DNA of 64,000 nucleotides from Capitulum mitella (lineage: Eukaryota > Arthropoda > Thecostraca > Pollicipedomorpha > Pollicipedidae), in NCBI GenBank assembly GCA_030062745.1, contig CP099840.1, positions 15,097,437-15,161,436 on the forward strand, written 5' to 3'. Of the stretch, positions 39,141 through 62,340 are shown piece by piece. The position numbers and the translations under genes were made by a program. A model generated the notes under the pieces. It saw nothing but the letters and a program-made list of their open reading frames with translations. It had not been told where the DNA came from and ran no database searches. Each line of letters opens with the position of its first letter. Position 1 is the stretch's first letter.

Positions 39141-42009
39141 TCACTGCTGCGACCACGACTCCTCAAAGTCCTGCTTCAGCTGGTTCATCCAGACCGAGTG
39201 GTCGACCTCCCAGTCGTCCGCTTCCAGCCCTCGGCCGGACGAGTTGGTCGTCGTCAGCAGGTAACCGATGCTGACCAAAACCAGTCCAATTAAGGCAGCC
39301 AGCGCCAGCAACAGGAACGGAGCGGCCGCTGCAAACATGCAGCCCCAGTTTATCGACACGAACACGACGGCAACGATCCTGACTGCTAGAACTCTTCTGA
39401 CCGCGCGCCGTAACAAGTGAAGCATAAATCACGAATGTATCTTGCCTTTTTAAGGTCTAGTGCCACAGCAGAGGTTTCAAATGTCAGAAATTGGGTTTTT
39501 ACGCAACCTTGCAAACTGGTGTCAGCCTATAAAGGCGTCAACAGCCATAAGAAATGTCCAGTCGTCGAGACTTTTTTAGCCTGAGTCACACTCATGGTTG
39601 ATCTTGGCCATCTTTTAGATGGCCAAGATGCAGCGCCCAAATTCATGACTGGTTTGAAAATCCCTTCCGGACACCAGAAGGCGCTCACCGAGCGAGGCAG
39701 GATCAGTTCTATCCGATATGGGCTGGAAGAAGTTGGCCAGTCTGAAACAAGAGATTATCGCGTCAGGGCATACTGTAAGGTGTGCTGTTTGGCGCACACT
39801 ACGCTATGCGGCCAGCACCGGTACCTGGCAGTTTGGCGTTTTACCTACGTCGATAAGTCTCTGGGGCACGTTTTCACGGCTCGGCACGGCCCCAGTCGCA
39901 GCGTGAGTGGCATTTCACCATGATTGGGAGGTTGTACGCTGGCTTGGAAAGGCAACTTCGTATAACGTAAGGCACGGCGGGAAGCGTTGGCATGGCCGCG
40001 GGCCAGATGCAACAGAAAGCAGGACTTTCTTGTTATCGGAAAGTAGTATAATCATATACAACGTTATTGTCGCTACACAAGGGGATAGTAAATTTATGAG
40101 ACATTTTAAAGACAATGTAAGAACAAATAATTTATTACTGCACTGCGGTTCTCATGTCCTTTACTTCACATTTCCGCAATGGTTTCCTGTGGGTTTTTGG
40201 TCTATTTCGAACATGCCAGATGTTGCAAACGAAGGTTTTTCAGTTGCAGTGCTGCTCATCACAAGATATCCCATGATTTTTACGCCACATTGTTGGGGTG
40301 ATGCTGCCGGAGGACCGCCTATTGGATTGCGGACACGTGATGGGATCGATGGATTTCAGTGATTAAAAGCGATCTTCACAACATTCGTCAAATGCTGCTC
40401 CCACATTTTTGGCGGGTCCCGAAGATGCAAAATGATGCGTGAATTATGGCAATATTAATCGAGGAAATAAGAATACCACCATGCAGTTGTTGATACCAGG
40501 GCGCTTCCTTCGTTTCTGATACAATTTCCAACATCAAAGCCAGTATCACCTTCATCATATGACGCCAATGTCATGTTATGACCATCGCTATTTGTTGTCG
40601 AGCAAAGACAGACTCCACTAAGACTCCAGCACGAACCAATGGCTGGGAGTCATGGAAATCTTCACGGTCATTATTGTCATGCAACGCTCACTTGTTAGCG
40701 TTATCATAAACAAAATCATAAGAATTGGGTACATTTCTACCTGACCAGAAGTTTGCCAATTATTTTGTAATTCTACGTTATGTATATTATAATTGCCATA
40801 GGCACATTCATAAATAAGTATTCAAAAAAATCGGTGGCCTTATGTAAAATTTTGCCCTTATAAATTTAGAGCACCGACCTAACTGATGGCCAAGTACAAT
40901 TCGTAAAAAGTGTAAAATTAAGTGATGTCAACATTGGACTTAATTAAAACATTTTCAGTCCCCTCGTAAACAGGTTACTAGGATAATCTTTCAACTGTCA
41001 GAGCTGCCAGCTTAGCTACTAGGTCTGCTTTTGGAAAGCAACCTTTTCAAAAGTCATGCTGTTTTCCAGATTTTGTCTTTTTCAATACTTCACGAAGAAA
41101 CCTTTACGTAGGAAACCCTTTGCTACTGAGGACAGTTACATTACTGGTTAATGGCAAATGTACTAAATTTATGTTCGTTGTGTATTTAGGCATAAAACAA
41201 TACTTCAGTCTTTTAAATGCGGATGGATAAAATTTAAAACTGTTGACCACATTCATCGAAACCTATTGCCCAAAGGACTTTAGCGGAGATTTCTGGTCAG
41301 CTATTAGTATTGTCTAACGCATGTGACGTAGCCCGTAAGACACATCTTACCGCGACGACGGTTCTGCCGTCTTGGTTGCATTCAGTGCTATTCGTGTGGC
41401 AACGCCATTGTTGCGCACCTCTTTACCCACCACTGCACTTAGATGGAATCCAGACCGTCTGTCGATGATGGTGCCGTAATGCACAAGGTTTCACCTGGAT
41501 AGTCTCACTTGAGGGGCTCGGCTGAAACAGGCTTGTTAACCTGCAGAGACAAAGGCTGTGCTTCGTTGGGATCCAGACCGCTTGCCGATGATGTTACCGA
41601 AACGTCTCAGGTTTATCGGCATGGTCCGGCTTGAGAGCTCAATTAAAATAGGCTCATTAGCCTGCAATTACGAGGGCTGGCGTGAAGTTTCCCTGAGAGA
41701 TCGGGTCTGACCTCGGTTCAAACGGCGTGTGGTGCTGTTATAAAACAGTGTGTCCCCATGTATTTCAGAAGACTTTTGGGTAGCCGGGCCGCTCCCGGGA
41801 CAACCGACTCACCCGCTGGCGACGCTGGGGAGGCAGTCGACTCACCTGCTGGCGATACTAGGGGAGGCAGCCGGTGGGCCCGGGTTGTAGTAACCGGGAC
41901 CGCTCCCGGGGTAGCTGGGGGCGCTGTTCAAGTAGTAATCGGCATTCCCATGTTGGGCGGCAGAGAGGTAGACCAGCGACGCCAGCAGAACGCAGTTGGC
42001 AGCATTCAT
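39141..42009 (-). CDS. Gene 1: small secretory-pathway membrane protein of an unrecognised paralogous family (three exons, 134 aa)
   Basis: Exons, in transcript order: 42009-41846, 39741-39689, 39328-39141. Seen: exon 1 starts MNAANCVLLASLVYLSAAQ, a signal peptide, followed by a Tyr/Pro/Gly-rich stretch (NADYYLNSAPSYPGS, PGYYNPGPP), and ends at a consensus AG|GTGAGT donor in phase 2. Exon 2 (53 nt) follows a TTGTTTCAG acceptor, encodes LANFFQPISDRTDPASL and ends G|GTGAGC in phase 1. Exon 3 follows TGTTTGCAG, encodes a hydrophobic helix (about residues 76-99), NSSGRGL, WEVDHSVWMNQL and a tail ending SWSQQ, then TGA. Exon lengths of 164, 53 and 188 nt give one unbroken frame. Introns are 2104 and 360 bp. 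A pyrimidine-rich run ending CAG directly before the ATG suggests a non-coding 5' exon. Paralogous with the gene at 60818-62340, same strand and intron phases. Inferred: a single-pass protein with an extracellular Tyr-rich N-terminus and cytosolic tail. Function unknown. The gene model is strong because two loci support it. Confidence 0.8.
41440..41680 (+). repeat. Diverged two-unit tandem repeat of about 121 bp in intron 1 of gene 1
   Basis: GGAATCCAGACCG (41446) and GGGATCCAGACCG (about 41567) open two units. Each continues with GCCGATGATGxT, a GGTTTxxxxGG block, CTTGAG, and GGCTTGTTAACCTGC or GGCTCATTAGCCTGC, then GAGGGCTG or AAAGGCTG. Confidence 0.75.
41808..41874 (-). repeat. 33-bp tandem duplication carrying two splice-donor copies at the end of gene 1 exon 1
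   Basis: CTCACCCGCTGGCGACGCTG and CTCACCTGCTGGCGATACTA begin two adjacent similar units on the plus strand. On the minus strand each has a GGTGAGTC donor. Only the first one reached (donor at 41845) keeps the frame, because a TGA is formed in frame immediately beyond it. Confidence 0.75.
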
Positions 42010-42639
42010 CTGCCGTGCAGCGCCAGCGGCAGCAGAAACAGGGGTATCACACGTCGGAAGTTTGGAACGTAATTTTCTTCAGCATCCTTGCATGAAAAGA
42101 TCTTTGTTAAATGGACCATAGAAGCAGCAGGGCTTCATGGCCGTGCTTTGCAGCTAATGGTACTTACGCATATACGTAAACAACTTTCAGGTCTTTCAGT
42201 ACCACACTGTATTTTAAGCACTGCATTTTGTCTCAAAATAAAGTAGGGCATGTAGTAAGTGCGGGTGTTTTAAGACTAGACGGCAGCTCTAACATTTTGC
42301 TGTGAGGACGCCCTCAGCCCAGCCGTGCAGCGAGAGGAATCCTTCGATGGCGTCAACTACCCTGGGACTCCAGTTCAACACTATCGTCAAACCCGTACCT
42401 CTAAATTCGGGTAGTGCAAGAGCAGTACAATCAGCCAACTGTGCTCCAGACGATGTTTGCGTGCACGGTGGTAGGCTCGGAACACTGGCACTGTATCGCT
42501 GTCCAGGAGATCTTCTCGTCGCCGGTTCCGCCGCACACTGTATCGTCCTCACTGTCATCTCCTCCTTTTGTAGCGGGATCGGCGACAAATCGCTTCGTCA
42601 TGCACCCGATGAAGCTGGAAGAGCGGGCGCTTTTTTGAG

Positions 42640-44060
42640 AGGTTCTCCATCAAATTTTGGCCGGTCGCACGCGCGCGTCCCTGCGTGCCGGCGCGTTTCT
42701 ATTTGCGCCCGATCCCGGTCAACGGCGGAGGCCGACGATTGGCTGGGCGCGCGCGACCCGCAGCGGCGCATCACGCTTTCGCCGTAACGAGCGGAGCCGG
42801 CGGCCGAGCGGCGGCCGATTCGACACGCTCCTCATCGCGGCCGAGCGTAGCTGGGCCGTGCAGTGTCGTCTGCCGATCGGACGCGACAGGTGTCTGACGC
42901 CTGGCGCAGGGGCGGAGAGAGGCGGGCGGGGCGCGCCGAACCCGAGCTGGCCGCGCTCCGCCGGCCTCTCGCAGCCCCTCGCCTTCAGCAGGCTCCACTG
43001 CCGGCAGCCAGGGACGACAATGGTTTGTCGGCCGAGAGGACGGGCGACAGTGCCGACCGGGCGTCGCCTCGGATTTTGGTCGGCTTGACGAGCTCAGATG
43101 GAAATTCGGAAGGTGGCCCTGAGAGCAGTGGTCTTTGTCCGTGCCGCCAATATCCCAGCCGGCTGTGATATATGGTCACCGTTCGGACAACAGGGCTGGC
43201 CGCGTGCAGGGTCAGCCTGCTCGTGCGACGTTTCTGCTTTCCTCTTCTTTGATTCTCCAATCCCCTGAGGGCTGCATGGAGTGGCCTTATTGGAAGCTCT
43301 CCAGCAAAACCCAACGAAGTTCATGACTACTCATATTACTGCGTGACCTCGAGTGGATTATTTGAATTTTTCTGCGTTCTGTCCCGGACCGTCGTCCGCG
43401 GAAGACTTGTCACGCCGAATACGCGCCATCGTCAGTCGGCCGGAACTGGCGCCTCTGATCGAAGTGGGGGGGGGGGGTCTGTACCGGTGGTGCTTGTTAC
43501 CAGGTGTGTCCGGCAGGGGCCGATGGTCGGAGTGAACGGGGGGACTGTACCGGTAGTGCCCGTTACCTGATGTGTCCAGGGGTCGGTGGTCGGCCACCGG
43601 CTCGCAGAAGTTCGAAAATAAAGCTCACGTGTAGGAGAGAGCCGTGCCGTCGGTCGTTTTGCCTAAACAGAGGCGGCGTCTAGTCTCGAGCCCGCCATCA
43701 CTCATCGGCCGGCGCGTTTTCTCCGGCACGGGGCAGGAGGCCTGTGTCGAGAACACACCTTTGTGGCGCCACCCCTGCGTCGCGGATACACATCGGCGAT
43801 CGGCGTGAGCGATGACACCGCCGCCTCGCCCGTCTGGGTTTTCTCCTCGACTACCTGTGGGAGGCGGCACGCTTCCCAGCGCTTGGCTGTTGCTCGGGTC
43901 CGATACGGTGGCGATGGGACGGAGGGGGTGGGGTTGGGGCAGTTGGTACGCGGCTCACGCCGGCCGAGCTCAGTGGACCGTAGAGTGTTTCGCAGCTCCG
44001 GGTCTCAGGCACTAGGTCAAGAGCGCTCGCCCATGGCTGCCACCTGTATCTCACGGTGGC
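42640..44060. promoter_or_regulatory. CpG-dense region upstream of gene 1
   Basis: From about 42640 to 43090 and again from about 43600 to 44060 the DNA is conspicuously GC- and CpG-rich (ACGCGCGCGTCC, GGGCGCGCGCGACCCG), unlike the surrounding sequence. It begins about 630 bp upstream of the gene 1 start codon. Such regions can mark promoters, or unmethylated or coding DNA. Several overlapping frames are open on both strands, so no gene can be assigned. No TATA box or initiator was placed with confidence. Confidence 0.3.
43478..43605 (+). repeat. Two-unit tandem repeat of about 62 bp
   Basis: CTGTACCGGTGGTGCTTGTT and CTGTACCGGTAGTGCCCGTT begin two units that continue with ACC(A/T)G(G/A)TGTGTCC and end in GGTCGG. 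Lies in CpG-dense DNA upstream of gene 1. Confidence 0.75.
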
Positions 44061-44993
44061 TTCCGCAGGGAGACTTCACAGTGTTACATATTATCATCTT
44101 AAATACGCGCACTTCGTTACAGTGTGCCTAATGTGCCTAATGATGTCCGTAATGTGCATTCAGGTGGGATCAATGATCTAGACATTATGACGACAGTACG
44201 TATGGATGAATGGATCGGTATCGCAGTACTGAGGCGGAAACAGAAACGGCTGAGAACGGGATAATGCTTGAGCGTCCAAGACAAGTGGGGTTAAGTAACT
44301 TCTGTGCCGTGGGTCGACAAATTACAATGTGCCTGTTAAAGAAATAATATCGGAGGCTATCCCGATGATTATCACTTTTCGCGTGCGACTAATTTTACGT
44401 AATAGGCGATCAGCCATGAACTAGCTTTCACTTGTACGGGTGCAGTGAAATAAGACCAAATTGGATGGGGTGGGACTAGTACTGGACTCATTTTACAAGT
44501 AGGGAACTCCATGTGGATTTCCGCACGTGAGGTGGAGTTTGTCTGTCGTTACAACTTCCAAGGAAATGCCGCAGAAACTGGATCTGATCAGGCACGGCTG
44601 CTAATGTCAAAGGCCCTAGTGTTCTTTGTCAGGCTTTCTGTCATCTGTTCCATGGCGCCTTAGTTGTCTAACCTTAGTTGGTTGACTTCAGAGATTGCAG
44701 TGCATGGTTTCCAAAAGAAATTCTGTGTACAAGCAGGTAGGTCAAAGACATTTGGAAAACCCCATTGTTCTCTCTTTTTGAGAGGCACGTAAACGACAAG
44801 GGAACATGTGGTTTTGGATGGGCTCATGGAAAAGTGGTATTACGGATCAAGTGCACTTGTCTCCAATATTCTGTGTAAAGGCACTAAAGAGGCGCAATGC
44901 GTATGAACAGCCTCCACTCTGGCATCACCAGTAGCAAAAATTTTGGAGCATTGTCTCTTATTGGAGGCGCATTTAGCTTCCATCTGATTTTGA

Positions 44994-46272
44994 CTGAACC
45001 CTATCCAGAAATCGGCGCTAAAACCTATCCCTGTAGAGGGTGGGGGTGGGGATGAAGACTTCGGAAGTCCTCTCCGTTTTCTCTCGCTATTTCCAGGATT
45101 TATGCAGCAGCTTCACAAAACTTCCGGATTTTCTTGCTTATCATTCCTATATGTTCCGCCGAATTTCCAGAATTTCATTTTGCCCCGGAGCTGAGCCAGT
45201 CCTCATTTTTTAGACACGCTTCAAACCTTTTTAGCACTGTTGAATGTAAAAGAAATGGCTGACAAAAATAGAGTTTTAAAGATGGATCTCAAACATTTAC
45301 ATGAGTGTACACGTAAATAACTGCTCAAACAAACATTAGTTTTTTGTTCACATATGCTCAATTTACAAGACCATCCCAAGGTCAAAAATCAAAATTCGAT
45401 GTTATTTGTTCAGTTTTTTTGGTGCTACTTGCCCAAAATAAAAACGAACACCTGGCTACAAACAGCGTTTTCTACCTGTTTTTGAAATTCAGGTCGATGT
45501 CAGGTCAGATCATAGACATAGCCTGACTATGACTTAAACTGACTTAAAAGCCTAGATTATAATCTGGAATGTCCCCGCGCGTGCTCTATCTCACGTCTAT
45601 TACAAACGTGACATTGGGAAATATAACAAGTCCATGTTATGAGAATCGTTTTAAAAAATTATGAAATGAGTCCAAGGCCATTTGCTGCGACTTTGAAGAT
45701 ATTGGAAGTTCTCTGAGATTAAAGTTCATAAGCTAATTGGAAGGAAATGCAGCCATGACGGTTTCCCTTTTTCATGTTCTTGACATCGTCCTTTTCGACA
45801 TTACACAGATAGTGTAATACGATGTGTACATCTCAGGTATAAAATGATTAGTTCAGTCTAAGAAAGGTAGTTAGCTATTGCGTTAATTCAGTTTAAAAAA
45901 TACCCCCATTTTCCATATGCCCCTGTAAGCGCCTATGAATTTTGTGAAAATTTCAAACATGTGGGCCAAATGAGAAAGTGCCATCGATAAGCTCTTAATC
46001 CATGCCAGGTGCAAGCAGATCGGTCCATTGGCATCAGGGTAGTGGCAAGTAAAAATTGCCCTGCAAGACTTTGTTGCCCTGATGTATCCACCTTTCACAA
46101 TATTTCAAAATTTCTTGTTATGAAAATCCAGTTTTGCCCTGGTGAATCGATCGCCGCCTTTTCCAGTCAAATCGGGCAGATAGTTCTTGAGATCTCGGGG
46201 AGGGGGGAGACACTAAGTCCCCTTCCCATACGGTAATGCGTCCATGCGTTATGGGTACAGGAATAAGGTTAA
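44994..46272 (+). mobile_element. TTAA-element, old degenerate copy G
   Basis: The same sequence of blocks as copy A can be followed: GCAGCTTCACAAAACTT near the start, TGAATGTAAAAG, AATTTTGTGAAAATTTCAAA near 45940, CTTGAGATCTCGGGG near 46186, and a terminal AATAAGGTTAA. Many indels and substitutions indicate an older insertion than copies A-C. Confidence 0.6.
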
Positions 46273-48599
46273 GATGAGATGGCGATATGTAAAGTTCCGT
46301 CAACGTGAAGTCATAATTGTTGAAATTATCGAAGCGTCACTACTGCCCAGCCGACCATGGCCGGCCGTTTTGACTAGTGCTCTGGTGAATGGACTGCTAT
46401 GGATTCCTGTCTGGTGATCATGAGACAGGTCATGCTTTTTTGCTTTTTCACATTCACACGGATATATGCACATGATGTTGTGACCGCCAGTTCCAGCATT
46501 CCAGCAACATCACGACTCCTAAAATGGCGACGCACATTATTGCTGACGTAGGTAAACGTCACCAGAAAAGAAGCCTGCCAAATCAAACTTTGGTACGTCA
46601 CCACAGGCCAGTCTCGTGGCCATCTCAACAGCCCCACTCACGGCCAAAGATTAATGCAGTCCTGCGACCCTCTGTACATCTGTACAATACACCTGTACCA
46701 TCTGTACTACACCTACTCGACCCTATCTCAGTCTGCCAATGACTGGCATTGTGCTTTGCGACACACAGAACGCAAATTCACAGACACCACCAGTCGACGG
46801 TGAAACCTGAGCACCGAGCCAAGGCGTTTTCAGTAGTCGCAAAAGTCGCAGAGTCGTTCTTTCGTTCTCTTTCTTTCTTTCAGAGTCGCAGAAAATGGCC
46901 TTGGATTCATTCCATAATTTTTTAAAACGATTCTCATAACCCTCCAGCGGCAACAGATAGACAAGGTACCGAAAAACGTAAACCGCCTTACAGTCAAGGC
47001 ATTGAGGCTAACATGCACAATGAACCTTTTCATCAACGTTATTCCGCCCCCACACATGAAAAGACGTCGTCATTGCTCGTGCTACTTCACGGCTAACGTT
47101 GAATAAGGCTGCCGTCACCCCCGGGACGGACAGGACGATGCAGAACAAAACCGGGGGTGCAGGAGGGCCTAACCGCCCTTGGGCCCAATTCTCTGGGACG
47201 GGAGTCTTTTTCTAGCCTGGGTATATGCCCCCCCCTATACGTCCGCCCTCCAGCGGCTAACTGCATGATAACGAACATCATCGTTTTAATTTGACGTCAA
47301 GATAGTTCAGTGTAAACCATGTATTATTAAATTCATTATTAATTGGAAGCATTAGTTATTAAATTAGTCTACTGTTGATTTCTTCACTACAATACTTGCT
47401 TAAGAAATCTGGCATGAGGACTTCTAATAAGCGGAAACCGAAAAATGCACCGTAGTCAGTGTTGCTAACAATGAGTTTTTTAGGGTTTATTGAGGTCTTT
47501 GGTGAATATCTTATTATTTCTGTTTTTTAACTGAGTTTTTCATCGCGACCAGTGTGTTTTTCCACGTTTTTCGTTTAGATCTTTTTATCTGTACCCAGTC
47601 GCCGAAATTACATTATTTCCCTAAAAGTGAAGGCAAAACCTAACTTGTTTAGTAAATTCCTTTCTGTATGGTAGCTCTGGTACACAGTCCTTCCATCTTA
47701 TTGGAACCCTTCTCCTGGTTCTGCTTCCGGGCAAGAAAACAAAGTGACCTTCGATGCCATATTTCTTTCAATCGTCTCCCGCCAATATCGCCGCCCGTAG
47801 GCGCAGTTTTTGGTTCACGCAGACTTGTGTGATCAACGTGAGGCGGACACGTTGTTGATTTGCAATAGCAAGCCGCTCACATCTAACAGAAAACGGCTTT
47901 ATTTCAGTGCTCGTACATTCTTCAAGATGAGGATGCTGGAACGGGGGAATGAGCGACGTCTGGCCATGCTCGCTGTCCCCCTGTTAAGATGATGTTTTCT
48001 TCCTTTCAAATACAGCAGTACGTAGAAACATGGTTCAGAATCGCCATGACCTATCGCCAGAATCACCCCCTCCCCCACAAGCACCTCGAAAGCTTTCCCT
48101 AGCCCTTTGGACGTGTCTCAATATTAAAGGGGGTCGGTTTTCCAATGAGCACTTTGGCGCTGTCCTGGACTATGTGCGCCTCAACTGAGCTGTTAGGTAT
48201 GTATGGGCGGTGTACGCTTTGTTAGAATACAATATCTACTAATTTTTGCTCCTCGAAATCGCGGCTGAATTTTTTGCTCCAAAACTGAGCATTTTTTCCG
48301 AAATTTTGCAGACATCAGTGGCTGTAATGCATTTCGTATGTTACTGAGTTTTTTTGGCCGTAATGGAGTTTTTGAGTTTTTTTTGGGGGGGAAAATGAGT
48401 GTTTTCTTAAAAAAAATGGTCACACCGCTTGTGGTGTGCATCAGGTATTCAGGCATTCCCTACTAACGGGTGGACAGAATGAAATGAGACAAAATTTGTC
48501 AAGCAAGTTCCTCGGAACTATTCGGGGTAACGGTACGAAAGTTTGTACGTGGTTTCTACCTACTTTTTTGTAACTCTTATCAATAAACATGAATAATGT
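46273..48599. other. No gene recognised
   Basis: Short frames and AT-rich stretches. Nothing with domain or splice support between TTAA copy G and the Tc1/mariner relic. Confidence 0.45.
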
Positions 48600-49530: not shown

Positions 49531-50009
49531 GCGCACTGCTGACCAACGGGGAATGACAGCGTTTGCTCGCCAGGAAACCGAGTAGCATTTAAACTGACCC
49601 CACGCTGCGTGTGAAGTTTTATTTGGATGTGTTAACAAACATTTGAGATATTAAGCTGCATATTTTTTTCCATTTTATACTGCCTACCCGTTAGATGACA
49701 TAGAGAAGCATCTCTTTGCATCTCTATAATTACTCGTTTCTTATCAATATTACTTGCCAGATTATCAAGCTGTTTTAAACTCATCCATCTCTTCATGTTA
49801 TCCTAGAAGCGCTACATGGGCAATCCCAGAATTTATGCAGAATAACTTCACGGTGAGGGCAGATATCACATTTGTAAGAATGAAACATATGACATTTGTT
49901 CCAAACATCTGAACAGAAACCTGTTCTTGAGACCTGATTACCAGGTCTTACCAGTGAAGTCAAAACCGACAGTCACTCACCTCCCCCCTTCTGACGATGT
50001 CAACAGTCT

Positions 50010-50950: not shown

Positions 50951-50957
<7 letters not shown>

Positions 50958-51017
<60 letters not shown>

Positions 51018-52221: not shown

Positions 52222-52412
52222 GAACTGGCATGGTTCAGCGTTATAATCGGGTGTCATCGGCTGATTGAACTCGCATGGTTCAGCGTTATAGTCGGGTGTC
52301 ATCGGCTGGGTGAATCGGCATGGTTCAGCGTTATAGTCGGGTGTCATCGGCTGGTTGAATTGGCATGGCTCAGCGTTATAGCTGGGCGGCATCGGCTGGT
52401 TGAACTGGCATG
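52222..52412 (-). repeat. 45-bp tandem repeat, four to five units, open in one minus-strand frame
   Basis: Unit starts near 52231, 52276 and onwards are spaced 45 bp apart. On the minus strand the frame encodes a 15-residue repeat, MTPDYNAEPCQFNQP, with small variations (CRFTQ, CEFNQ), and stays open for 76 codons in total. A length that is a multiple of three with conserved residues could mean coding selection, but no start, signal or splice context was found. Confidence 0.7.
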
Positions 52413-53034
52413 GAATGACCCTGCATGAATCAGCTTATTTCAAATTGAAGTCATCTTTATTCCGGCATAGTTCATATTCATGTCTTTTTAGCTGCGACGC
52501 CACACAGAGCGGCCACGGCCAAAGCTGCCAGATGACGGTATTGGCAGTGGTCGCTTTGTGTAGTTGGCCTTGACACCTCTGCCAACACTCAAAACGCTGC
52601 CTGAGCGCTGCATCGTGCCCCCAAAAGGAGCCGATAACATTGCAAATAATAGCATGCTCTTTTCAACGTTACATCGCCTAACAAGCGACTCCAACAACAT
52701 GTGACGTCCTTTTGACAGCGCGTCATCATCTAGAACAAAAATATTCCCAGTAATAACAAAATCCGGCCTATCTTTTCACACCAGTAAGGAACGCATTCTT
52801 CCGACGTTCACATCACCATCATCGAGGGAACCCCGACGTTCGTTTGCGTTTGGAGGTCCCCGTGCGACCAATGATCGCCGTTGTCGCGTGCTCCTCTGAA
52901 AGGAAGTGGCGGCGATCGCGTGGGTTCGTGCCGCCGCCGTTTATCCGTCCGTCACGATGCCAGCTGCAAACGTCCCGCGGGTCTTGGCATGTCGCTGGTC
53001 GGCTAATGGACAGTGACAGGACGGTCTCTGCTGT

Positions 53035-53096
53035 CTGCGAACAGCGTATAACGAGCGGTGAGACGTGCGAACAGCGTATAACGAGCGGTGAGACAT
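53035..53096 (+). repeat. Two-unit 30-bp tandem repeat
   Basis: GCGAACAGCGTATAACGAGC followed by GGTGAGAC(G/A)T occurs twice in immediate succession, practically identical. Confidence 0.9.
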
Positions 53097-54299
53097 GTAG
53101 ACACCGTGGGCGCAATCAGCCCCGTAGCGTCTACGTCGCTACAGAGAGAATGTATATATATGCCCCTCGAAAGGACATCTATTGATTTATTAAATGGAAG
53201 TCAAGTACATAAAATATTGGTACGTAGGAGGATCGCCTCCTATAAAAGAATACGTAATAATCTTCGTAGCTGCTGGTTTCCAAGTCACAAACGGGTTATT
53301 GGAAATAACGCCGCGAGCATGGCTGGAGTTCTTGAAAAATCCCAAGTGGTGATATGTTCAGACACCCCCCCCCCCCCGAAGAAAGAACTCTCCGGATTTA
53401 GGTTGCTTCAGTTTCAAATACCAACAGCTTTGATTTTTATCTAAGACGCTTAACGTTACAGTGATGTTGTAGGACCTATTTACTATATCTCCTCGTCCTC
53501 CTCGACGGGTTGAATATTCATAAGCCTCGTTAGCCATCACACCCTGTCGGTTATGCAATGGGACAATCAACTTGAACTGGCTTTGAAGCTAATGTTCTGG
53601 ATCTAATAAATTATGCGGGGCGCAGAGAGCTCCCATTAAATGATACGAAAGACATCAGAAGTATCAAAACTGGTACATGTTGAGTCCGGTTCGCGGGCCA
53701 GTGTCGGGTGCACAGTGTTGGACCCAGTACAAGCAACAAATTGCAAGGAAAAATGAGCATTTGGTTGCATTTAGCGCAAGGCCCATTATTAGCCCAGTGA
53801 TTGGATGCATCTGCCCAGTCACGGCACCCCAGTCCTACGGTTTAGGACTAATGAAAGGTATCAGAGAGTGCTTAACTAGAATGCTGAGTAACAAACTGGA
53901 TACATTTTATTTCTTGTATTTCAGTATTCGCCTTTTACATCGGTGCAGCTTCGTATATATTTCTCGGTGTAACAGCCTTCCAACCACTTTCAGAATTAAC
54001 ATAAGGTCTGTGATGGTATTCACTAGCTCAAATCGACTGCTGACCGCTCAAATTCACTCGAACTCTGTCTGTACCATGGCAATGGTTTTAGAGACGTTTT
54101 GCCCGCGGTCTTGGACGCGTTGTTCTGGCAGATTACTGGTACAGTTCAACATACACTTCCCGGTCACAGGTACTTATGACCCCCAAGGGCTTAGTCTAAG
54201 ACACCTACCCACCACTGTTCCATCGGGCCAACGATCACCGAACCGGGATAGATTCAGCGACTGGGCCACTGGGGTATCAGGGACGACATCACAGAAACG

Positions 54300-54590
54300 A
54301 TCCATCTGGATCAGGCGGCACTGGCAGCCACAGGAACTGTGCCAAGGTCTGGACCAGGCGGTGCCCAAATCTGGATCAGGAGACAGCCACAGGAGCGCTG
54401 CCGAGGTCTGGATCAGGCGAGACTGGCAGCAACTGGAGCGGCGCCGAGGTCTAGATGAGGCGGCAGCCATAGGGGCGGTGCCAAGGTTGGGATCAGGAAG
54501 CTGCTACAGGGTCGGTGCCGAGGTTTGGATCAGGCGGCAACCACAGCAACCGTGCCGAGGTTTGGATCAGAAAGTAGCCAAGGGAATGGT
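54300..54590 (+). repeat. Minisatellite of about 38-42 bp
   Basis: The unit contains CCGAGGTCTGGATCAGGCGG and a variable CAGCCACAGGAGCG part, repeated about seven times with indels. It forms the 3' part of a 309-codon plus-strand open frame (53677-54606), the longest in the window. I see no domain in that frame, and its first half has no distinctive composition, so it is not called a gene. Confidence 0.8.
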
Positions 54591-54682
54591 ACAGCTGCTT
54601 GAATGAGGCGGGAGGGACCACAAGAACGGCACATGTCATAAGCAGACGTAGGGCCTACACACGGCTTCGTTCCCAAGCCCTA

Positions 54683-55740
54683 ACACACACTCAAAAAATG
54701 TCGAACGCCTTCATTCGCTGCGGAGTCACTCCAGCAAACTGCCGGAGGAGTGCCACACTATCGAAGACCCGGACGTCCTTACCGTAGGTCGCGTAGATGG
54801 CAATGGGATTGAGACGCTACTGGGTCATGGTTGATCTGAGGTATGATTTTAGGCGACGCAGTGTGCTTAAACTTCTCTCTGTGGTGCATGTTGTAGCCGG
54901 AATGGTGAATAGCAGGCGCAGAAATTTCACGCCTTCCGTCAGTATGGCCCTTTTGACTCCTTGAAAACTACGGTGACGTGAAGCGTTTCCAAGGCATCCG
55001 GTCCACCACAATGATCCTACAGCATCTGCATGTTTAGCTTCAGCCTTCCAGTTCGTGTCCATGCTGAAGTGGGCAGCAGTGCGTTCGGTTGCAGCAAGGT
55101 CACCAGTGATCAGTGTCCGTTCGGACTAAGCAATGACCTTATCCTCAACGAAGAAGTCCTTTTATCTGGGACGCTTCCCAGGCTGTCCACGGCCTTCAGA
55201 TATACGCGCCGATATTTTGCCTTGGCGTTGCCGTGAGTTGAGGCTCGGTGGTTTCAACCAGTCGCGTTCTCCTCGGCAGCCAGGGCTAGTCGATTTGCAG
55301 TTTTTCGGCCGTTTTCAGTGTCTCAGACCAACATTTCTCGAAGCGACGTTGACGGACACTCACTGCTTGCCGCAGAGCCCTCGCTTGGTCCAGACTGGCC
55401 TCCACCTTCTGCTGTTCGGCCTGGATAACTGTAACCATCGGCGTGGTCACTCGGAGCACCAGCAGAACCAGGTTTACCAAGCACCAGAAGTCGAAGTCCT
55501 GCAAGAAATCCGCGCGCGGTTCTGCACGCCTCCGGTTGCACGGCAGGGTCGTTTGCGACCTCATCAGGGGCGTCTCGAATGGCCTCCCAGTTGGCCACTA
55601 CAGAGGTCAGTGCAGGCTCGGAGCACATCCAGCGTGTAGCGCCGAATGGAGCCCTTATCTATAGGTTAAAACTGCTGCCGTACAGGCCGCCTGGTCTTCG
55701 CTCAGTCCTCGATGGTTGGGAGCCCACTGAACTGTGGTAT
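54683..55740 (-). pseudogene. Degraded hAT-superfamily transposase (ZMYM1/THAP0-like) with C-terminal dimerisation region
   Basis: Read on the minus strand. Around 55630-55560: NWEAIRDAPDEVANDPAVQ. In a shifted frame: QDFDFWCLVNLVLLVLRVTT, QAEQQKVEASLDQARALRQ and KTAEKLQID, then an in-frame TAG at about 55286 followed by PWLPRRTRLVETT. Then 55062-54817: FLRLLFTIPATTCTTERS and STLRRLKSYLRSTMTQ, a TAG in place of the usual Glu codon, RLNPIAIYA, and an end near RRMxFxDI (QRMKAFDIF). Known: TIPxTxCTxERSFSxLxRIKxYLRSTM is the hAT C-terminal dimerisation signature, and the upstream helical block plus LPRxxR is typical of the ZMYM1/52-kDa-repressor-like branch. Stops and shifts show it is inactive. 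The N-terminal zinc finger was not found. Confidence 0.8.
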
Positions 55741-55892
55741 CCTCCGACAGAGGCATCAGTCTTGGAGAACTTCCGGGGTCGGTGCGTACCGGGGACCAGC
55801 CATCCCACGGCAAGGCCCGGTACAAGCGCAACTTTTTGAGCGGCTTCAATGGGAAAATGAAACGTTATGGTCAAATTTCCTACAACCGGCCC

Positions 55893-56107
55893 GGTTTAGC
55901 CCGGCCCGATCGAGCCCAAACAGGGCTTTTGGCTAGGCCTGACGGCCCTGGTTTTGACAACTCTACCTCCAACCCATACATAAGATTCGGTAAGGAATGT
56001 AGCCATTTCCCCGAGTCAAGTGAGCTGCAGTATACGCCAGTGATGTCAAAACCAGGGCCCGGCAGTCCTAACCAAAAGCCCGTTTTGGGCCCAGCGGGAC
56101 CCAAACC
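55893..56107. mobile_element. Foldback element with inverted arms of about 65 bp
   Basis: The segment 55893-55959 is repeated in reverse complement at 56044-56107 with few mismatches. The arms include GCCCAAACAGGGCTTTTGG on the left and CCAAAAGCCCGTTTTGGGC on the right, and TTTTGACA/TGTCAAAA at the inner ends. The spacer is about 84 bp. This is the shape of a miniature inverted-repeat (foldback) element. It lies within 200 bp of the hAT relic and might be a hAT-driven derivative, but no target duplication was identified. Confidence 0.65.
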
Positions 56108-57439
56108 TTTTGTTTGTGGGAAATCTGCCCATATTTCTTTACTTTCTCATTCATGCTCGTGAAACAACTGAGTCTGAGCTGGGACTCGTCGTGGACGGTT
56201 AGCCCCCGGTCTTCACCGGTCCCGCAGATTCTCCAAGACTGACACGTCTAGCCTACACTACATATTTTGCAACTTCCAAAGAATACGGGGTGGGCGGTAT
56301 TTGAAGAAATTGACGTTCTCTCTAAGGAAAATTCTGATGTTTCTTCTGTACGCAGATAAAATATCAACATGTCAACAGTTCACTGTTTCTGCATTATGTT
56401 ACTCTGTAAAGTCGGTTAAAAAAAACACACACAAAACGGACAAGGAAAGAACTGTGTGTGCGTGCATCTACTATTTGCCGCTTCTGACTTTCTAGTAAGA
56501 CTATCAGAAGTCTGAATTCAAACTTATTTGGAAACCAGATATGATGTTTTTGAAGTTAGCAGTCGTAATGTGGGGATGGTTGTGGTTTAAATTACAATAG
56601 ATTGAATGGCGCTAGATGGCGCAAAAGAGACAAGACTGAATTCCTTCCAAGGCGTGTGATATTAGGTTGTCGCTGATTCCCTCCGCTATTTTCTTTGCAC
56701 ACGTGGAAGCAGTGCAGAATGTTAGTGCGACACGACTATTAATACCAAATCTGGGCAGATTTGCAGTTCCATGACCGATATTTCACACAGCTATCATAAG
56801 ATTCTAGTCTGTTCCATAGTTGCAGCTTCGAGGGGGAGCCGGGGGACCTGGTCCCCCATCCCCCTTAGGCCCACATTTTTTGTGAAAACCATTGCACATC
56901 GTCTTACCGGCAGGCGGTTTTCGCATGATTTCAGTTCATTCTAAGCCCCCCCCCCCTTAAGAAAATCCTGGCTGCGCCCCTCGTCTGTCCTGACGTTTCT
57001 AAAGCTACCCTAAAATGAACGCAACTAACTCAAATTTTAGATGCTGCCATTCATGCTGCCAGCTCAACCAGATACAATGAGACGTGGTTTCAAGACTGGT
57101 CTATACTATGTGTGTACCTGTTCCGGCAGGTTCTGTGCTTGTCTTTGTCTAGTTAGTAATATGATGCAGGTACTTGATTGCCTGGATGTACAGTATTGTC
57201 TTTGTAGTGTGCATCTTAGAATATTTTTTTAATTCAATCTTGGTCACTATAAAAATAAGCAATGCTTCCAGATCCTGTTAAAAAGTCCCGTCTATGTGGG
57301 ACCTGGTGTATTTCTCTAGGTGTTACTTTTTGCTAGGTGGTCCAAATTTTTGTAGATGGTGCTCAAGCATCACCGAAGAGATATAAAACTCCGCATTTGA
57401 ACACGAGTATAGATTATGCATGTCATTCTCTCTTTCTGT
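56108..57439. other. No gene recognised
   Basis: AT-leaning sequence between the foldback element and the CT microsatellite. Contains a short G/C-run segment near 56830-56980 that resembles the ends of the TTAA families in composition only. Confidence 0.4.
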
Positions 57440-57451
57440 CTCTCTACTTAC

Positions 57452-57546
<95 letters not shown>

Positions 57547-57553
57547 TCTCTCA
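57440..57553 (+). repeat. (CT)n microsatellite, over 100 bp
   Basis: Almost perfect CT dinucleotide run of about 50 units with one CCCTC interruption near the end. Confidence 0.95.
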
Positions 57554-57779
57554 GTATCTCCATGTCTCGTCCGCTTTCTCTCTGTGGGTTTCTTGGGTTT
57601 GTCCATTTTTTACATACATACATCACTTCCGACACTTTTCCTTTCGCTCTCGCTGGCCGTTTGGCTCCAGTCCTCCCATAAAAGCGTCCAAGATGTCCTG
57701 ATAGGCCTGGGCTATTCCGAGTAGATGGCTGAGCCTGTCACCTGCCGGGCGTGTCCTACCGACAGGGAGGACCTGTTCG

Positions 57780-58160
57780 GTTCCAGCAGGAGTGTAGGCT
57801 TGCCCCGCACCGGTCCCGGGAATGTCAGCGGCCTCCTACTGCGGGAGTCTCCAGTCCTGGGCCTGTCAGCTGTCTCCTGGGGAATCAGTAGTCCCGGGAT
57901 TGCCAGCTTCCAGCATGGGGAATTACCAGTCCCGAGACCGTCGCTTTCTACCTGTAGACGCACCAGTCTCGGAAATGCCAGCTGTTTCCGGCGGATGCAC
58001 TAGTCCCGGGAATATCGCCTGACACCTGAGGAGGTCCCAGCTCCGGGACTGACGGCAGTCAGTCCTGGGGTTGGGGACTGGAGGCGCCCTAGCTGAGGGT
58101 CCTCAGTCCCGGAAATGTCGGCAGTGTCCTGGGAAGGCACCAGTCCCGGGCCTGTTCGCT
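57780..58160 (+). repeat. Minisatellite with CAGTCCCGGGAATGTCAGC-like core
   Basis: The core AGTCCCGGG(A)(A/C)T(G)(T/C)CAGC is spaced 30-60 bp apart, separated by variants of CTCCTGGGGA, across roughly nine units. Open frames here (92 codons from 57725) are repeat-driven. Confidence 0.75.
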
Positions 58161-58279
58161 GTCATCAGGGGCAGACGCAGTCTGACCCTCGTCTCAGGGC
58201 GGCAGATCTTCGTCAGAGCAGAGCTCCGGTAAAAGAGGAGGCTGTTCAATCCCTCTGTCTGGAGAACCTTGTCACCTGT

Positions 58280-58725
58280 TCATTGCTGTCACAGGGTCAG
58301 GGGTAACACCATCGCTATCAGAGGGTCAGGGGTAGCACAACGTCTATCATAGGCTCAGTGGTAACATCAACGCTGTCACTTGGTCAGGGGTAACACTACT
58401 GCTGCCACAGGGTCAGGGGTAACGCCACTGCTGTCACAGGGTCAGGTTTAACACCAATGCTGTCACAGGATCAGGGGTTACACCACTGCTGCCACTGGGC
58501 CAGGGCTAACACCAGTGCTGTCACTGGGTCAGGGGTTACACCACTGCCGCCACTGGGTCAGAGGTAACACTGCTACTGTCACAGGGTCAGGGGTAGCACC
58601 ACTGCCGTCACAGGGTCAGGGTTAACACTACTGTTGTCACGTGTACGAGGTTACGCCGCTGCCGTCACAGGATTAACTGCTGGGCCAGATTAACACTACT
58701 GCTGCCACAGGGTCAGGGGTAACAC
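58280..58725 (+). repeat. Minisatellite of about 30 bp, about 14 units
   Basis: The unit is close to CACAGGGTCAGGGGTAACAC followed by CACTGCTGT, with point variation (CACTGGG, GGTTACACC, GGTAGCACC). It follows the 57.8-kb minisatellite after about 120 bp of unrelated sequence. Confidence 0.9.
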
Positions 58726-60817
58726 CACACAAGTTCAGCGGTGCGAAGAACGGCCAGAAGCAGCGTGCTACGCGCTGCTTGGTCAGCCGTTTTTGTGGAC
58801 GCTGTGTTCTAAGACGTGGGCCGGTGGAGCAGCAACAGAGGGAGTTTCCTCAGCTGCCGGTGACACCGGGGGCGGCCCGTGCGACGCATTCCGACCGGTC
58901 GGCATGGGTACGGGCGCATCCGGAGATCTGAGCCGGCCGCCCCAAACCGGTTTAAATACGCACCCAAACGAGAGCGGAGAAGCGAAAGCATTTCCCGTTT
59001 GACGGACGCCGTGTGTGTGTCGCCGCCGAACAGGCGGTCCAGGTCGGCCGGCCGGTGTCGGGCCGGTGCCGCCCGCCGGCTGTGTGTCACCGTGCGGCGG
59101 CTGTGGCGGTATCTGCCCGCTCCGGCCGTCCGCCCGTCACACGATGGCCGGGCGCATGGCGGGACGGGCCCATGGGTCCGGCGCTGGGCGCGCTGGTCAG
59201 CCACAAGACGGCAGCCACTCTGCCTTCGATGAAGACGCAGCGCGCCGCAGTGATATACGGGGAAGCGAATGCGGTTGCGAAACAACATGTATTACGAGCA
59301 GTTGGTTGTGAGCGGTTCGTTGGTTTCAAAGAACAGCTAACTGGCCATTCGCCATTGGTCTGGATTAAAAAAAAAACTTGGTAGGCAGGTGAAAACGAGG
59401 CAGGCAGGTGAAAACGATCCAGCTGCTGTCCTACCCAAATGATGCCCTGACTGCGTTTCTCGTATCTCCCACGCCCACTTTCTATTCTTCCTGCGCTTTT
59501 CATCGAGGGCAGGCTGGTGGTAGGCCTCTCAGCGTTAGTCGCATTCAGCCATTGTAGATTTATGAGGACCACAGCTGTCTGACTTAGCGACGCAAAATTT
59601 TACCACGCCACCATTCCAGTTTGCGTTCGAAAAAAGATGAGGCCAGGGTCCACACAATAAGCCCTGCTTAGTAAGGACTCGGATCCCAGAAACATCCTTT
59701 TCAGAAGCGTTCGGACCAAATTTACAAAGAAATGACCAATGTCCATTAAAAGGAAGTGAAATACGGAACGTGCATTGTTCCCGCATGTTGCCTGTTCATC
59801 GAGCCGTCGTTCATCGAGTTCGTCGTTTACAGAGCGACGCAGGCCGTCAGTGCTGCGCAAACACCCGGCCGTTTCATTCTCATGTATTGCCGATGACTGC
59901 TGCCTCCGAGGGCTGAGGATCTGCCGCCCGCTCGACTGCGTGCGGCTCGGTGCCGACCTCTTGAAACGCACACGGCTCGTGTCGGCTAGCGGTGACCGCG
60001 CGCGCGACGCACGACGACATCGTTTCAGCACTGATTCTAAGGGCTCGCTCCATCTGAAGGAGCAACTCACGCGTAATGTAACGTAACATGCGGGCCAACA
60101 ATCGCCGCATAACAAACAAACAAGCACACCGCTCCATAAACAACAACAATAACAATGTGTCACTGGAAATAAAACAAAAACTTGAAAGAAACTGGCTTTA
60201 GGACGATCAGTGACTAAGAACAGCCGAAACAAACCGATGGCGACTCGTGTGAAGTCCTGTGTGTCTGTCTAACATACACTCCCTCACATATAACGTGTCC
60301 ATGGATGTTGATCGGTGTCTCTGAAGTAGCCTAGTGTGCATTAGCTGACTCAATGAAAACATTATTCAATATTCGGCGAAAACAGAGATTGCATTGAATG
60401 CAATGCTGGCTTGGTCGTTGCCACTGTTCCAAGAACTCATCACGGAAAGTCTTCTAGACAGGTTTGGCGCTCGTCTAGCTGAAACATAAGGACAGCTTTG
60501 CGACCTCCTGCTATGCAAAGTACATTGTCTCAACACTTGACAATGCTAATATTCATTTTACAAAAGACTCTTGGATGAAAATAGCTACTTCGTAACGACA
60601 CTTTCCTCCCCGCAGTGATGCCTTGTAAGGACCAAAATGTAGACCTGGTGGTCACAAGGAGGGAATGTCTTCCCTTAGCAGTGGAACGGTGCCGTGCCGA
60701 CCGCCGCCTGATGACAGAGCTGTCCGGACGCAGCGGGGAACGATGTCGGGCAGCAATCGGTGAACGACGTTACCTGTGAGACGGCTCCGATCGGCGCTCC
60801 GTGAAGCCGGCGGACGA
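58726..60817. other. CpG-dense DNA and unassigned frames
   Basis: From about 58860 to 59230 the DNA is GC- and CpG-rich, with open frames on both strands (minus: LDRLFGGDTHTASVKREM; plus: GALVSHKTAATLPSMKTQR). No frame has homologous or splice support. A 19-bp duplication (GGCAGGTGAAAACGA) lies at 59390-59415. It is downstream of gene 2, which is transcribed leftwards, so it could include its 3' flank. Confidence 0.35.
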
Positions 60818-62340
60818 CTACTGGGTGGACCACGAGTCCTCGAAGTCCTTCTGCAGCTGGTTCATCCAGACCGAGTGGTCCACCTCCCACTCGTCCGTGT
60901 CCAGACCACGGCCGGACGAGTTGATGGTCGAGACCACGTAGTTGAGACCGGCCACCGCGGCGATCACCAACGCGACGGCGACCACCACGCCGACCAAAGG
61001 ACCTGTCGGAAGCCGGGCACCGTCACTGGCCGCGCGGTGCCCAGGCGGTGCCGCTCGTCTGAGTCGTGCGTCAGTGTCGGACTCTCGCCGGGGAGCCGTC
61101 CCAGACAGACTGGCGGCCGCGGCCGCAGACAGTGGACCAGAGCGTCATGTCTGCTCACAACCTCCAGTCAAACGACGCAGGTTCTTACTCTGAATTCGAG
61201 TCAATCGTGACGTGACTCTTATCTCGAGTCACCGTCCAAACCTAGCTTTTCGTCCAGAGTTTCGAGTCAGGCGTGACCAAGAACATTACCCAGAGCTCCG
61301 ATTCCGCCGAGTCCTCCGAAAATTCCGGCCAGGCCCTGGCGCCGCGTGGCTCCGAACAGACGGTCCCACAGGCTGCAACGGAAACCACCTGGCTGTAGCG
61401 CAACACCGCATCCACAAAGACAGTCACATAGTGGCCGGGGCATACCGGCTGTCACGGTATTCTTTTCCACCAAGGATTGGACGCAGCAATATCTGCTCAA
61501 TGTGACTACAAGTCCGCAATAAGCACTGATGTAAACGTTATCTAAACAACGAGAGGGGAACTATGATAACCGCAAACAGAGGGCGCACAAGGTACAACGT
61601 CAAAATCATATGAGCATTTTAACGACCTAAAACGCACCATGAAAATGCATTTTCCAACTTCTGCTAGACAGCCAGTCTACGTGGCCACAAGAGTGAGGCA
61701 TTAACGTAACCAAAGGATATAGATCAACCCACTCTTTTGTCATTATGTTGTCATGCTTGGTAATGCAAGGTGCAATTTTCCACACTAGTACATCACTGAA
61801 GCGTTATTCGTGTGGTTTTGCGGCCGAACCTTCATTGTTTTCACAAACGTTTTAGAGTTCCTTGATCCTCAGCACGAGGTTGTATCATGTCATTGATTGG
61901 GTATGGGGTTGGATTTTCTAATAATTTTTTTTTTCAGAGCCTTGGCAATGTTATGAGCACCCCGGCAACGTTACTGATGCCTGGCACATCGGGCCTCAGT
62001 TTCATCGATCCGCCAGACACTGTTTTGTTTGTCGTCAGCTAAAGTGGCATGATCCGTTTAAGGCAGACCGGGCCCTGCAGCGCTGCGGCCCGTGCGGTTC
62101 GGGCAGAGCGCCGGCAGGACCAGTGAAGCGCCGCCAACACCACCCCGAGGCGGCCGGCACGGCCGAGAGGCCGCTTCGCCGGCCGCACGCATACCCGTTC
62201 TCCTTGGGCGGCTGGTAGTCGTAGTAGTTGTTGTAGTTGGTGTAGGTGTCCGGTGCTGACGGCGCCGACTGCTGGTAGAAGCCCTCGTCGGCCGAAGCCG
62301 CGGCCGCCACGGCCAGCACGATGCAAGCGATCAGCTTCAT
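60818..62340 (-). CDS. Gene 2: paralogue of gene 1, small secretory-pathway membrane protein (three exons, 137 aa)
   Basis: Exons, in transcript order: 62340-62195, 61372-61290, 61002-60818 (146, 83 and 185 nt). Seen: exon 1 begins MKLIACIVLAVAAAASADEG, a clear signal peptide with likely cleavage after ASA, followed by the Tyr-rich segment YTNYNNYYDYQPPKEN and a GG|GTATGC donor in phase 2. Exon 2 follows TTTCCGTTGCAG and encodes LWDRLFGATRR then the Gly-rich hydrophobic GLAGIFGGLGGIGAL, ending G|GTAATG in phase 1. Exon 3 follows CTTCCGACAG and encodes the helix PLVGVVVAVALVIAAVAGL, NSSGRGL, WEVDHSVWMNQL and an end SWSTQ, then TAG. Introns are 822 and 287 bp. The frame is unbroken across both junctions. 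The 34-residue tail matches gene 1 at 27 positions, whereas exons 1 and 2 have diverged to composition only, so the tail is the constrained part. NSS is a glycosylation sequon, but it would be used only if the tail faced the lumen. No family recognised; function unknown. Confidence 0.82.

What the first reader, a model, noticed from the sequence alone, without database searches (positions are those of the whole stretch)
39141..62340. A paralogous pair of three-exon genes encoding an unrecognised Tyr-rich, single-helix membrane protein family
Two loci 21 kb apart on the same strand give complete models with the same architecture: signal peptide plus Tyr/Pro-rich exon, small linker exon, helix plus tail exon. 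Phases 2 and 1 match, exon lengths agree with the frame, and 27 of 34 tail residues are identical. The N-terminal parts have diverged. A conserved intracellular-type tail with a rapidly changing Tyr-rich outer part suggests an assembly or anchoring role, for example in cuticle, shell or adhesive, but that is inference.
Basis: partly seen in the sequence, partly recalled or inferred. Interest (0 to 1): 0.85.

Follow-up and report, generated by a model that had tools for sequence, protein, structure and literature searches.

The report
Nineteen-gene Tyr-rich membrane protein family
The two small genes are real, but they belong to a clustered family of about nineteen in this arthropod genome (probably a barnacle): proteins with a mostly tyrosine-rich outer part, a freely changing membrane helix and an almost frozen tail, whose job is unknown and which matched no family in the libraries available here.

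Summary
Both three-exon models read through with GT-AG introns, phases 2 and 1, and 27 of 34 identical tail residues. It is not a pair: A and B are two of 19 tail exons detected in the 477-Mb, 16-contig source genome (a lower bound). Twelve sit in 182 kb of contig C13, five on C2, two elsewhere; a search with a divergent tail found 18, all among these. All 8 exon-1 hits and both exon-2 hits lie in family loci, so the exons belong together. The tail is frozen by protein-level selection; the membrane helix, not the Tyr-rich part, changes fastest. Gene A's middle exon is the weakest element, though a paralogue has the same exon lengths. No Pfam, NCBIfam or PDB match was convincing; no invertebrate proteome could be searched. 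Best reading: type I membrane anchors carrying Tyr-rich, Cys-poor segments to the apical extracellular matrix, sharing one cytosolic tail partner. Function and topology are inference.

The parts
41846..42009 (-). Gene A exon 1: signal peptide plus Tyr/Pro-rich segment (ends phase 2)
   Evidence: Open; donor scores first of 170 GT sites on a recalled matrix; weak similarity to exon 1 of B, E 0.004-0.005
39689..39741 (-). Gene A exon 2 as called (53 nt, phase 2 in, 1 out); least certain part
   Evidence: Third of 11 candidates by splice score; same length as exon 2 in the best model of paralogue L014
41509..41540 (-). Alternative middle exon candidate of gene A, inside a diverged 120-bp tandem repeat of the intron
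   Evidence: Higher splice score than the called exon and used in the best-scoring model; repeat 41679-41561 / 41558-41438, 69% identical
39141..39328 (-). Gene A exon 3: membrane helix, conserved tail, stop
   Evidence: tblastn exon 3 against exon 3 E about 4e-21; one of 19 copies in the genome
39144..39251 (-). Gene A conserved tail
   Evidence: E 1.1e-18 to itself, 5.3e-14 or weaker to 18 others
62195..62340 (-). Gene B exon 1: signal peptide plus Tyr-rich segment (ends phase 2)
   Evidence: Matches exon 1 of C13 paralogues L019, L020, L022, L023 at E 1e-10 to 2e-8 in the 19-locus set and L019's exon 1 genome-wide at E 7.4e-6
61290..61372 (-). Gene B exon 2 (83 nt), motif WDRLFG..RRQG
   Evidence: tblastn hits in L016 (E 1e-4) and L023 (E 2.6e-6), weaker in L021 (0.002), L022 (0.018), L019 (0.048)
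60818..61002 (-). Gene B exon 3: membrane helix, conserved tail, stop
   Evidence: AlphaFold2 of exon 3: helices 2-32 and 39-59, mean pLDDT 74.6, pTM 0.35
60821..60928 (-). Gene B conserved tail; two near-identical copies lie 13.9 and 27.7 kb further on, outside the window

Best explanation
The two loci are members of a family of about 19 genes, mostly clustered, in an arthropod genome. SHOWN from sequence: a common plan in the resolved members (signal peptide with a mostly Tyr-rich, Cys-poor segment; short exon often holding R-R-Q; hydrophobic helix; acidic tail of about 30 residues with nine invariant positions), strong protein-level constraint on the tail, and loose constraint on the membrane helix. 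INFERRED: the signal peptide is cleaved, the Tyr-rich part faces the lumen or outside, the hydrophobic stretch is a single type I anchor, and the tail lies in the cytosol as a helix whose stripe W-L-[F/L]-W docks on one partner shared by all copies. The most likely use is delivery and anchoring: the shared tail sorts or holds the proteins at the apical membrane of cuticle- or cement-secreting cells, while the Tyr-rich segments are displayed to, or after cleavage at RR-Q released into, the extracellular matrix, where Tyr can be cross-linked or modified. Many copies would give dose and a few flavours of outer segment.
For: 19 tail exons in the genome, 12 of them within 182 kb of C13; the search with the divergent tail of C13:5665545 finds 18, all in the same set. 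Exon 1 query: 8 hits at E<=0.001 of 11 candidates, all 8 upstream and on the same strand of a family tail; exon 2 query: 2 hits at E<=0.1 of 6 candidates, both in family loci. Tail columns: mean top-residue frequency 0.84 against 0.34 for the membrane columns over 17 copies (L010 and L011 dropped as near-copies of B); medians over 116 usable of 136 pairs: tail dN 0.095, dS 0.53; membrane dN 1.29, dS 0.79. Subgroup L019, L020, L022, L023: tail dN 0-0.03 with dS 0.17-0.60; membrane dN 0.26-0.67 with dS 0.23-0.63; exon 1 dN 0.02-0.06. Hydrophobic in all 17 tails, counting from 0 at the S of SGRG: 9 (W), 11 (I/L/V), 16 (W), 17 (I/L/M), 20 (L), 24 (F/L), 28 (W); site entropy has helical periodicity (396 of 20000 shuffles as high). 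AlphaFold2 gives helices 2-32 and 39-59. Hydropathy peak 1.87 or more in 16 of 17 membrane segments, 0.82 in L015. RRQ in 8 of 12 models (6 of 10 without the near-copies) and 0-2 Cys after residue 18. Host: at least 150 Chitin_bind_4 exons.
Against: No transcript, localisation or partner is known. The tail is acidic (net -5 to -8 in all 17) and RR lies on the lumenal side, so the charges run against the positive-inside rule for a type I anchor. The hydrophobic moment of the whole tail is not unusual (5255 of 20000 shuffles; single sequences likewise); the C-terminal half (222 of 20000) was picked after seeing the data. L017 and L018 have few Tyr (3 and 2), so Tyr-richness is not universal; seven of 19 loci have no credible full model. 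The exon 1 query did not find exon 1 of gene A, L014 or L016, and the exon 2 query found only two loci. The models were scored with bonuses for phase (2,1), Tyr and RRQ, so they are not independent of the pattern.
Confidence: 0.4

Rival explanations
1. Membrane-tethered pro-peptides: the Tyr-rich segment is cut off at RR-Q by a proprotein convertase and acts as a secreted peptide (matrix, adhesive or signalling); the anchor and tail serve only for sorting into granules.
For: RRQ before the membrane in 8 of 12 models; in L009 and L013 the Tyr-rich stretch lies in an exon of another layout, with QKR in front and RRR behind; 0-2 Cys after residue 18 and no N-glycosylation sequon in the outer parts of 12 of 12 models.
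Against: By eye, no R-x-[KR]-R in the RRQ members (sequences); RRQ is absent in gene A, L017, L018 and L020; basic residues beside a membrane are common for other reasons.
Confidence: 0.25
2. Hairpin topology: the long hydrophobic stretch crosses the membrane twice, so the acidic tail is extracellular, as described for Drosophila Apnoia.
For: Hydrophobic stretch of 40 residues in B (65-104) and 34 in A (68-101) at Kyte-Doolittle 1.6; the two-exon alternative of A would add a further stretch at 1.4-1.9; the acidic tail would lie on the favourable side; Apnoia is also 137 aa with signal peptide, two membrane segments and extracellular C-terminus (PMC6333334, passages).
Against: 17-residue windows within the Gly-rich first half of the B stretch reach only about 1.3-1.6; by eye, L016 and L020 have one clear segment (sequences); AlphaFold2 makes one continuous helix from exon 3 (exon 2 not included).
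Confidence: 0.2
3. Ordinary lineage-restricted cuticle or secretory genes, perhaps already annotated as uncharacterised proteins in barnacle genomes and other crustaceans; conserved tail and clustering reflect normal tandem duplication.
For: Tandem copies at 95-98% DNA identity and a genome with many clustered cuticle-type exons; no tool here could search invertebrate annotation.
Against: Nothing found contradicts it; it does not explain why the tail alone is frozen across copies that differ elsewhere.
Confidence: 0.5
4. The tail similarity between A and B is kept by gene conversion of a short stretch rather than by selection.
For: In A against B the tail has 6 synonymous differences where 11.0 (sd 2.2) are expected if codons were drawn independently from these two genes; similarity stops sharply at the tail.
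Against: In the family tail dS has a median of 0.53 with dN 0.095, and 0.17-0.60 with dN 0-0.03 in the young subgroup: constraint on protein, not on DNA.
Confidence: 0.08

Closest known systems
Apnoia (apn, CG15887), Drosophila
   Same: Small (137 aa) membrane protein with signal peptide, short outer part and hydrophobic stretch; conserved in insects; [quoted passage not shown]
   Different: Two membrane segments predicted and extracellular C-terminus; the N-terminal peptide quoted in the paper is Ser/Asp-rich, not Tyr-rich; full sequence not available here, so homology untested
Osiris family (DUF1676), Drosophila
   Same: Family of membrane proteins in vesicle-like structures of tracheal cells, with a conserved AQXLAY motif and a suggested role in vesicular trafficking (PMC9870157, passages read); clustered genes (from a reference title in that paper)
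   Different: No DUF1676 hit and no AQxLAY motif here
Tyr-rich matrix and adhesive proteins, for example mussel foot proteins and diatom AC3362 (PMC4220933, passages read)
   Same: Secretory, Tyr-rich segment
   Different: The passages describe them as Lys- and Tyr-rich, AC3362 as longer (residues up to 537 are named), and three other diatom Tyr-rich proteins as without transmembrane helices; no conserved tail is mentioned in the passages seen
Kinesin light chain W-acidic cargo adaptors such as calsyntenin (PMC6214655, passages read)
   Same: Tail with Trp flanked by acidic residues
   Different: No Leu at position -2 as in the SKIP peptide; 1184 of 10000 shuffles of A's tail also have such a Trp

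Membership tests
Osiris | DUF1676 domain | tested here: not met
   No DUF1676 in hmmscan of A and B at E<=10 or of 7 paralogue sequences at E<=1
Osiris | AQxLAY motif | tested here: not met
   0 of 12 models
Osiris | Genes in a cluster | tested here: met
   12 of 19 tails within 182 kb of C13; not specific
Apnoia | Signal peptide, two membrane segments, extracellular C-terminus | tested here: inconclusive
   One long hydrophobic stretch; topology not testable here
Apnoia | Sequence homology | not testable with these tools
   Apnoia sequence not held; no invertebrate protein database
Chitin-binding cuticle proteins (PF00379) | Chitin_bind_4 domain | tested here: not met
   No hit, although the genome has at least 150 such exons
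KLC-binding W-acidic proteins | Trp flanked by acidic residues | tested here: inconclusive
   Read off the alignment: 16 of 17 tails (L015 has Phe before Trp); present in 1184 of 10000 shuffles of one tail
KLC-binding W-acidic proteins | Leu at position -2 as in the SKIP peptide | tested here: not met
   Position -2 is Asp in all 17 tails
The family described here | Exon 1 and tail exon belong to one gene | tested here: met
   8 of 8 genome-wide exon 1 hits at E<=0.001 lie upstream of a family tail on the same strand; splicing itself not testable here

The most novel reading that the evidence does not exclude
A lineage-restricted secretory system in which about 19 membrane-anchored, mostly Tyr-rich precursors share one nearly invariant cytosolic docking tail, so that a single unknown partner gathers, sorts and anchors a varied set of matrix or adhesive peptides at the apical membrane, with controlled release at RR-Q.
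Probability: 0.2. Interest if true: 0.65.

Novelty: new variant of a known kind. Interest (0 to 1): 0.45.

Why it matters
If the host is a barnacle, it makes unusual matrices (shell plates, cement, cuticle) with much lineage-specific machinery. A clustered gene family with a frozen tail and a freely evolving anchor offers a direct handle: the tail is ready-made bait for finding its partner, and the Tyr-rich parts can be sought in cuticle or cement proteomes.

Tried and rejected
Rejected: the pair as a unit (19 copies); gene conversion as the main cause of tail identity; W-acidic kinesin motif as evidence (1184 of 10000 shuffles); RNA or tRNA features in the window (no match over Rfam's thresholds; none by ARAGORN); neighbouring genes as a clue (of 20 other window ORFs scanned, out of 98 frames of 100 aa or more and many shorter ones, one had a domain, a hAT dimerisation piece). 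Weak database hits not believed: DUF5326 (E 0.0072, 17 bits, cut-off 27), DUF6112 and PrgI for B; MglB (E 0.013) and Rv0361_Cterm (0.015) for B exon 3 and SoxR (0.16) for A exon 3; three Pfam hits at E 0.028 or worse for L015; PDB hits at E 0.2 or worse and one at 5.9. Led nowhere: genome and viral contig scans (595, 148, 31 and 262 pattern matches, none confirmed), plasmids, and paper searches for Tyr-rich arthropod membrane families (Apnoia and the diatom paper came, the Osiris paper from the listing). The glycosaminoglycan-site idea (SGRG followed by acidic residues) was looked up in a search listing only and left, since it needs a lumenal tail. Tyr-rich internal-looking exons of L009 and L013 were seen but no signal-peptide exon was identified for them. 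Of the 19 loci, L009, L012 and L021 gave no model and L013, L015, L024 and L025 gave models that I do not believe. Never answered: genome searches with exon 1 of B, exon 1 of A and the L009 exon.
Full report
CHECK. Spliced in silico, gene A gives 134 aa and gene B 137 aa, no internal stop, GT-AG introns, phases 2 and 1 in both, 27 identical residues in the last 34. Inside the window exon 3 of A finds exon 3 of B at about E 4e-21; the next hit has E 0.68. DNA similarity between the loci is limited to 103 bp of the tail, plus one 19-bp hit. In a crude ranking of 758 open frames of 45 aa or more by third-position GC and position-specific G, of which the top 45 were printed after dropping low-complexity ones, exon 3 of A is second among the printed rows, next to frames antisense to the two tails; exon 3 of B is seventh.

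WEAK POINT. Gene A's middle exon. On a recalled splice matrix its called exon 2 ranks third of 11 phase-compatible candidates; a higher-scoring candidate lies at 41540-41509 within a diverged tandem repeat of the intron, and a two-exon model with acceptor 39378 is open. The called A-B pair of exon 2 ranks 35th of 132 candidate pairs by similarity. In one search the two A models shown, the best-scoring ones, also used the 41540 acceptor. Gene B's exon 2 ranks second of 12 and B has no two-exon alternative. For the called exon of A, paralogue L014 gives exons 1 and 2 of the same lengths, 164 and 53 nt, with F-S-P where A has F-Q-P; this favours the called exon but does not prove it.

SCALE. The source genome has 477,042,490 bases in 16 contigs, and the window is C2:15097437-15161436. 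The tail of A finds 19 exons at E 0.001 or better of 20 candidates scored: five on C2 (15096608, 15136580 = A, 15158257 = B, 15172114, 15185957), twelve on C13 between 16226075 and 16407848, one at C13:5665545, one at C10:24192327. The divergent tail of C13:5665545 used as query finds 18 of 21 candidates, all among the same 19; only C13:16288027 is missed. The tool calls such counts lower bounds. B has two further copies 13.9 and 27.7 kb on, 95 to 98% identical over the aligned DNA. One C13 member has an early stop in the tail (L018) and one has a broken exon 1 frame (L021). A and B do not group in the exon-3 tree, in which 11 of 15 inner branches are open.

THE EXONS BELONG TOGETHER. Exon 1 of the C13 member L019 used as query hits eight places in the genome at E 0.001 or better (11 candidates scored), and all eight lie 1.4 to 1.8 kb upstream of a family tail on the same strand (places compared). 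It does not reach exon 1 of A, L014 or L016. An exon 2 query hits two places at E 0.1 or better (6 candidates scored), both inside family loci, L023 and L022. In one search, of 19 loci run, 12 gave a best model with phases (2,1) and a signal-like start (A, B, L010, L011, L014, L016-L020, L022, L023), three gave none (L009, L012, L021) and four gave models I do not believe (L013, L015, L024, L025; two of these also with phases 2 and 1). The scoring had bonuses for phase (2,1), Tyr and RRQ, so the count is not independent of the pattern; the independent support is the tblastn of exon 1 and exon 2 and the genome searches.

WHAT EVOLVES HOW. Over 17 copies (L010 and L011 dropped as near-copies of B), tail columns have a mean top-residue frequency of 0.84, membrane columns 0.34; S, R, G, D, W, W, L, D, W are invariant. 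Medians over 116 usable of 136 pairs (pairs with undefined or very large values dropped): tail dN 0.095 and dS 0.53; membrane dN 1.29 and dS 0.79 (ungapped, near saturation). In the subgroup L019, L020, L022, L023 (six pairs; L021 left out for its broken exon 1): exon 1 dN 0.02-0.06, dS 0.03-0.19; membrane dN 0.26-0.67, dS 0.23-0.63; tail dN 0-0.03, dS 0.17-0.60. So the tail is held by selection on protein, and the helix changes almost freely while staying hydrophobic (peak 1.87 or more in 16 of 17). The outer part is conserved in the subgroup and diverged between subfamilies. In A against B alone, tail synonymous differences are fewer than expected (6 against 11.0, sd 2.2), a hint of local conversion that the family as a whole does not need.

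ANATOMY. Exon 3 of B folds as helix 2-32 and helix 39-59, mean pLDDT 74.6, pTM 0.35, from two sequences. Seven tail positions are hydrophobic in all 17 copies, four of them (16, 20, 24, 28, counted from 0 at the S of SGRG: W, L, F/L, W) at i+4 spacing; site entropy has helical periodicity (396 of 20000 shuffles), the whole-tail hydrophobic moment does not stand out (5255 of 20000), its C-terminal half, chosen afterwards, does (222 of 20000). Outer parts of the 12 models are 55-81 residues with 2-8 Tyr and no N-glycosylation sequon, with 0-2 Cys after residue 18; RRQ lies before the membrane in 8 of 12. L009 and L013 have a Tyr-rich stretch in an internal-looking exon between QKR and RRR.

ORGANISM. 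At least 150 Chitin_bind_4 exons here and none in the tool's 14 control genomes: very likely an arthropod. Sixteen contigs and 477 Mb fit a thoracican barnacle; Capitulum mitella is reported as 463.09 Mb with 16 chromosomes (PMC8416341, passages) and, in another assembly, 512.06 Mb (PMC11331182, passages). The species is not shown.

FUNCTION. Inference. A signal peptide, a variable outer part, an interchangeable helix and a frozen tail say that the tail meets one shared partner and the outer part does the varied work. With a mostly Tyr-rich, Cys-poor outer part in a cuticle-making animal I favour delivery to, and anchoring at, the apical matrix. Whether the Tyr-rich part is released at RR-Q, and whether the tail is inside at all, is open: the charges do not fit the positive-inside rule, and Apnoia, the nearest described analogue in size and plan that I found, is reported with an outside C-terminus.

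KNOWN OR NEW. No match over cut-off in Pfam or NCBIfam, none significant in PDB, none confirmed in prokaryote or viral contigs or plasmids, and none of four motif strings in 5.39 million open papers. Pfam and PDB hold invertebrate entries, but no invertebrate proteome could be searched, so novelty is relative to the libraries used; annotated uncharacterised relatives in barnacles are to be expected.

Noticed in passing
window 12163-13379, 13513-14724, 15022-16241, 32990-34205; diverged 16288-17387: Four 1.2-kb repeats 90-93% identical (plus one at 77-79%) that begin TTAACCCTATTCCCGG and end AATAGGGTTAA (one: AATAAGGTTAA): non-autonomous DNA transposons with TTAA-CCC ends, which resemble the piggyBac type (hallmark recalled, not tested).
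   Followed up: partly
window 41805-41870: A 33-bp tandem duplication spans the exon 1 donor of gene A and doubles the GTGAGTCG donor; reading past the first donor meets a stop at once.
   Followed up: partly
window 36701-37032, 54372-54585, 58284-58640: Three minisatellites (44, 37 and 29/58/87 bp units); the 44-bp one is open in all three frames of the plus strand.
   Followed up: no
window 54820-55125 (-): A hAT dimerisation fragment (PF05699, E 2e-5), the only Pfam domain found among the 20 other window ORFs scanned.
   Followed up: no
L009 4498-4648 and L013 6368-6512 (+): Two members carry the Tyr-rich stretch in an internal-looking exon with QKR in front and RRR behind, suggesting another exon layout and possible peptide excision.
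   Followed up: partly
C2:15158257, 15172114, 15185957: Gene B is the first of three tandem copies about 13.85 kb apart, 95-98% identical in aligned DNA: recent duplication or an assembly matter.
   Followed up: partly
L019, L020, L022, L023 exon 1: In this subgroup exon 1 has lower dS (0.03-0.19) than the tail in the same gene pairs (0.17-0.60), as if exon 1 were being homogenised.
   Followed up: no
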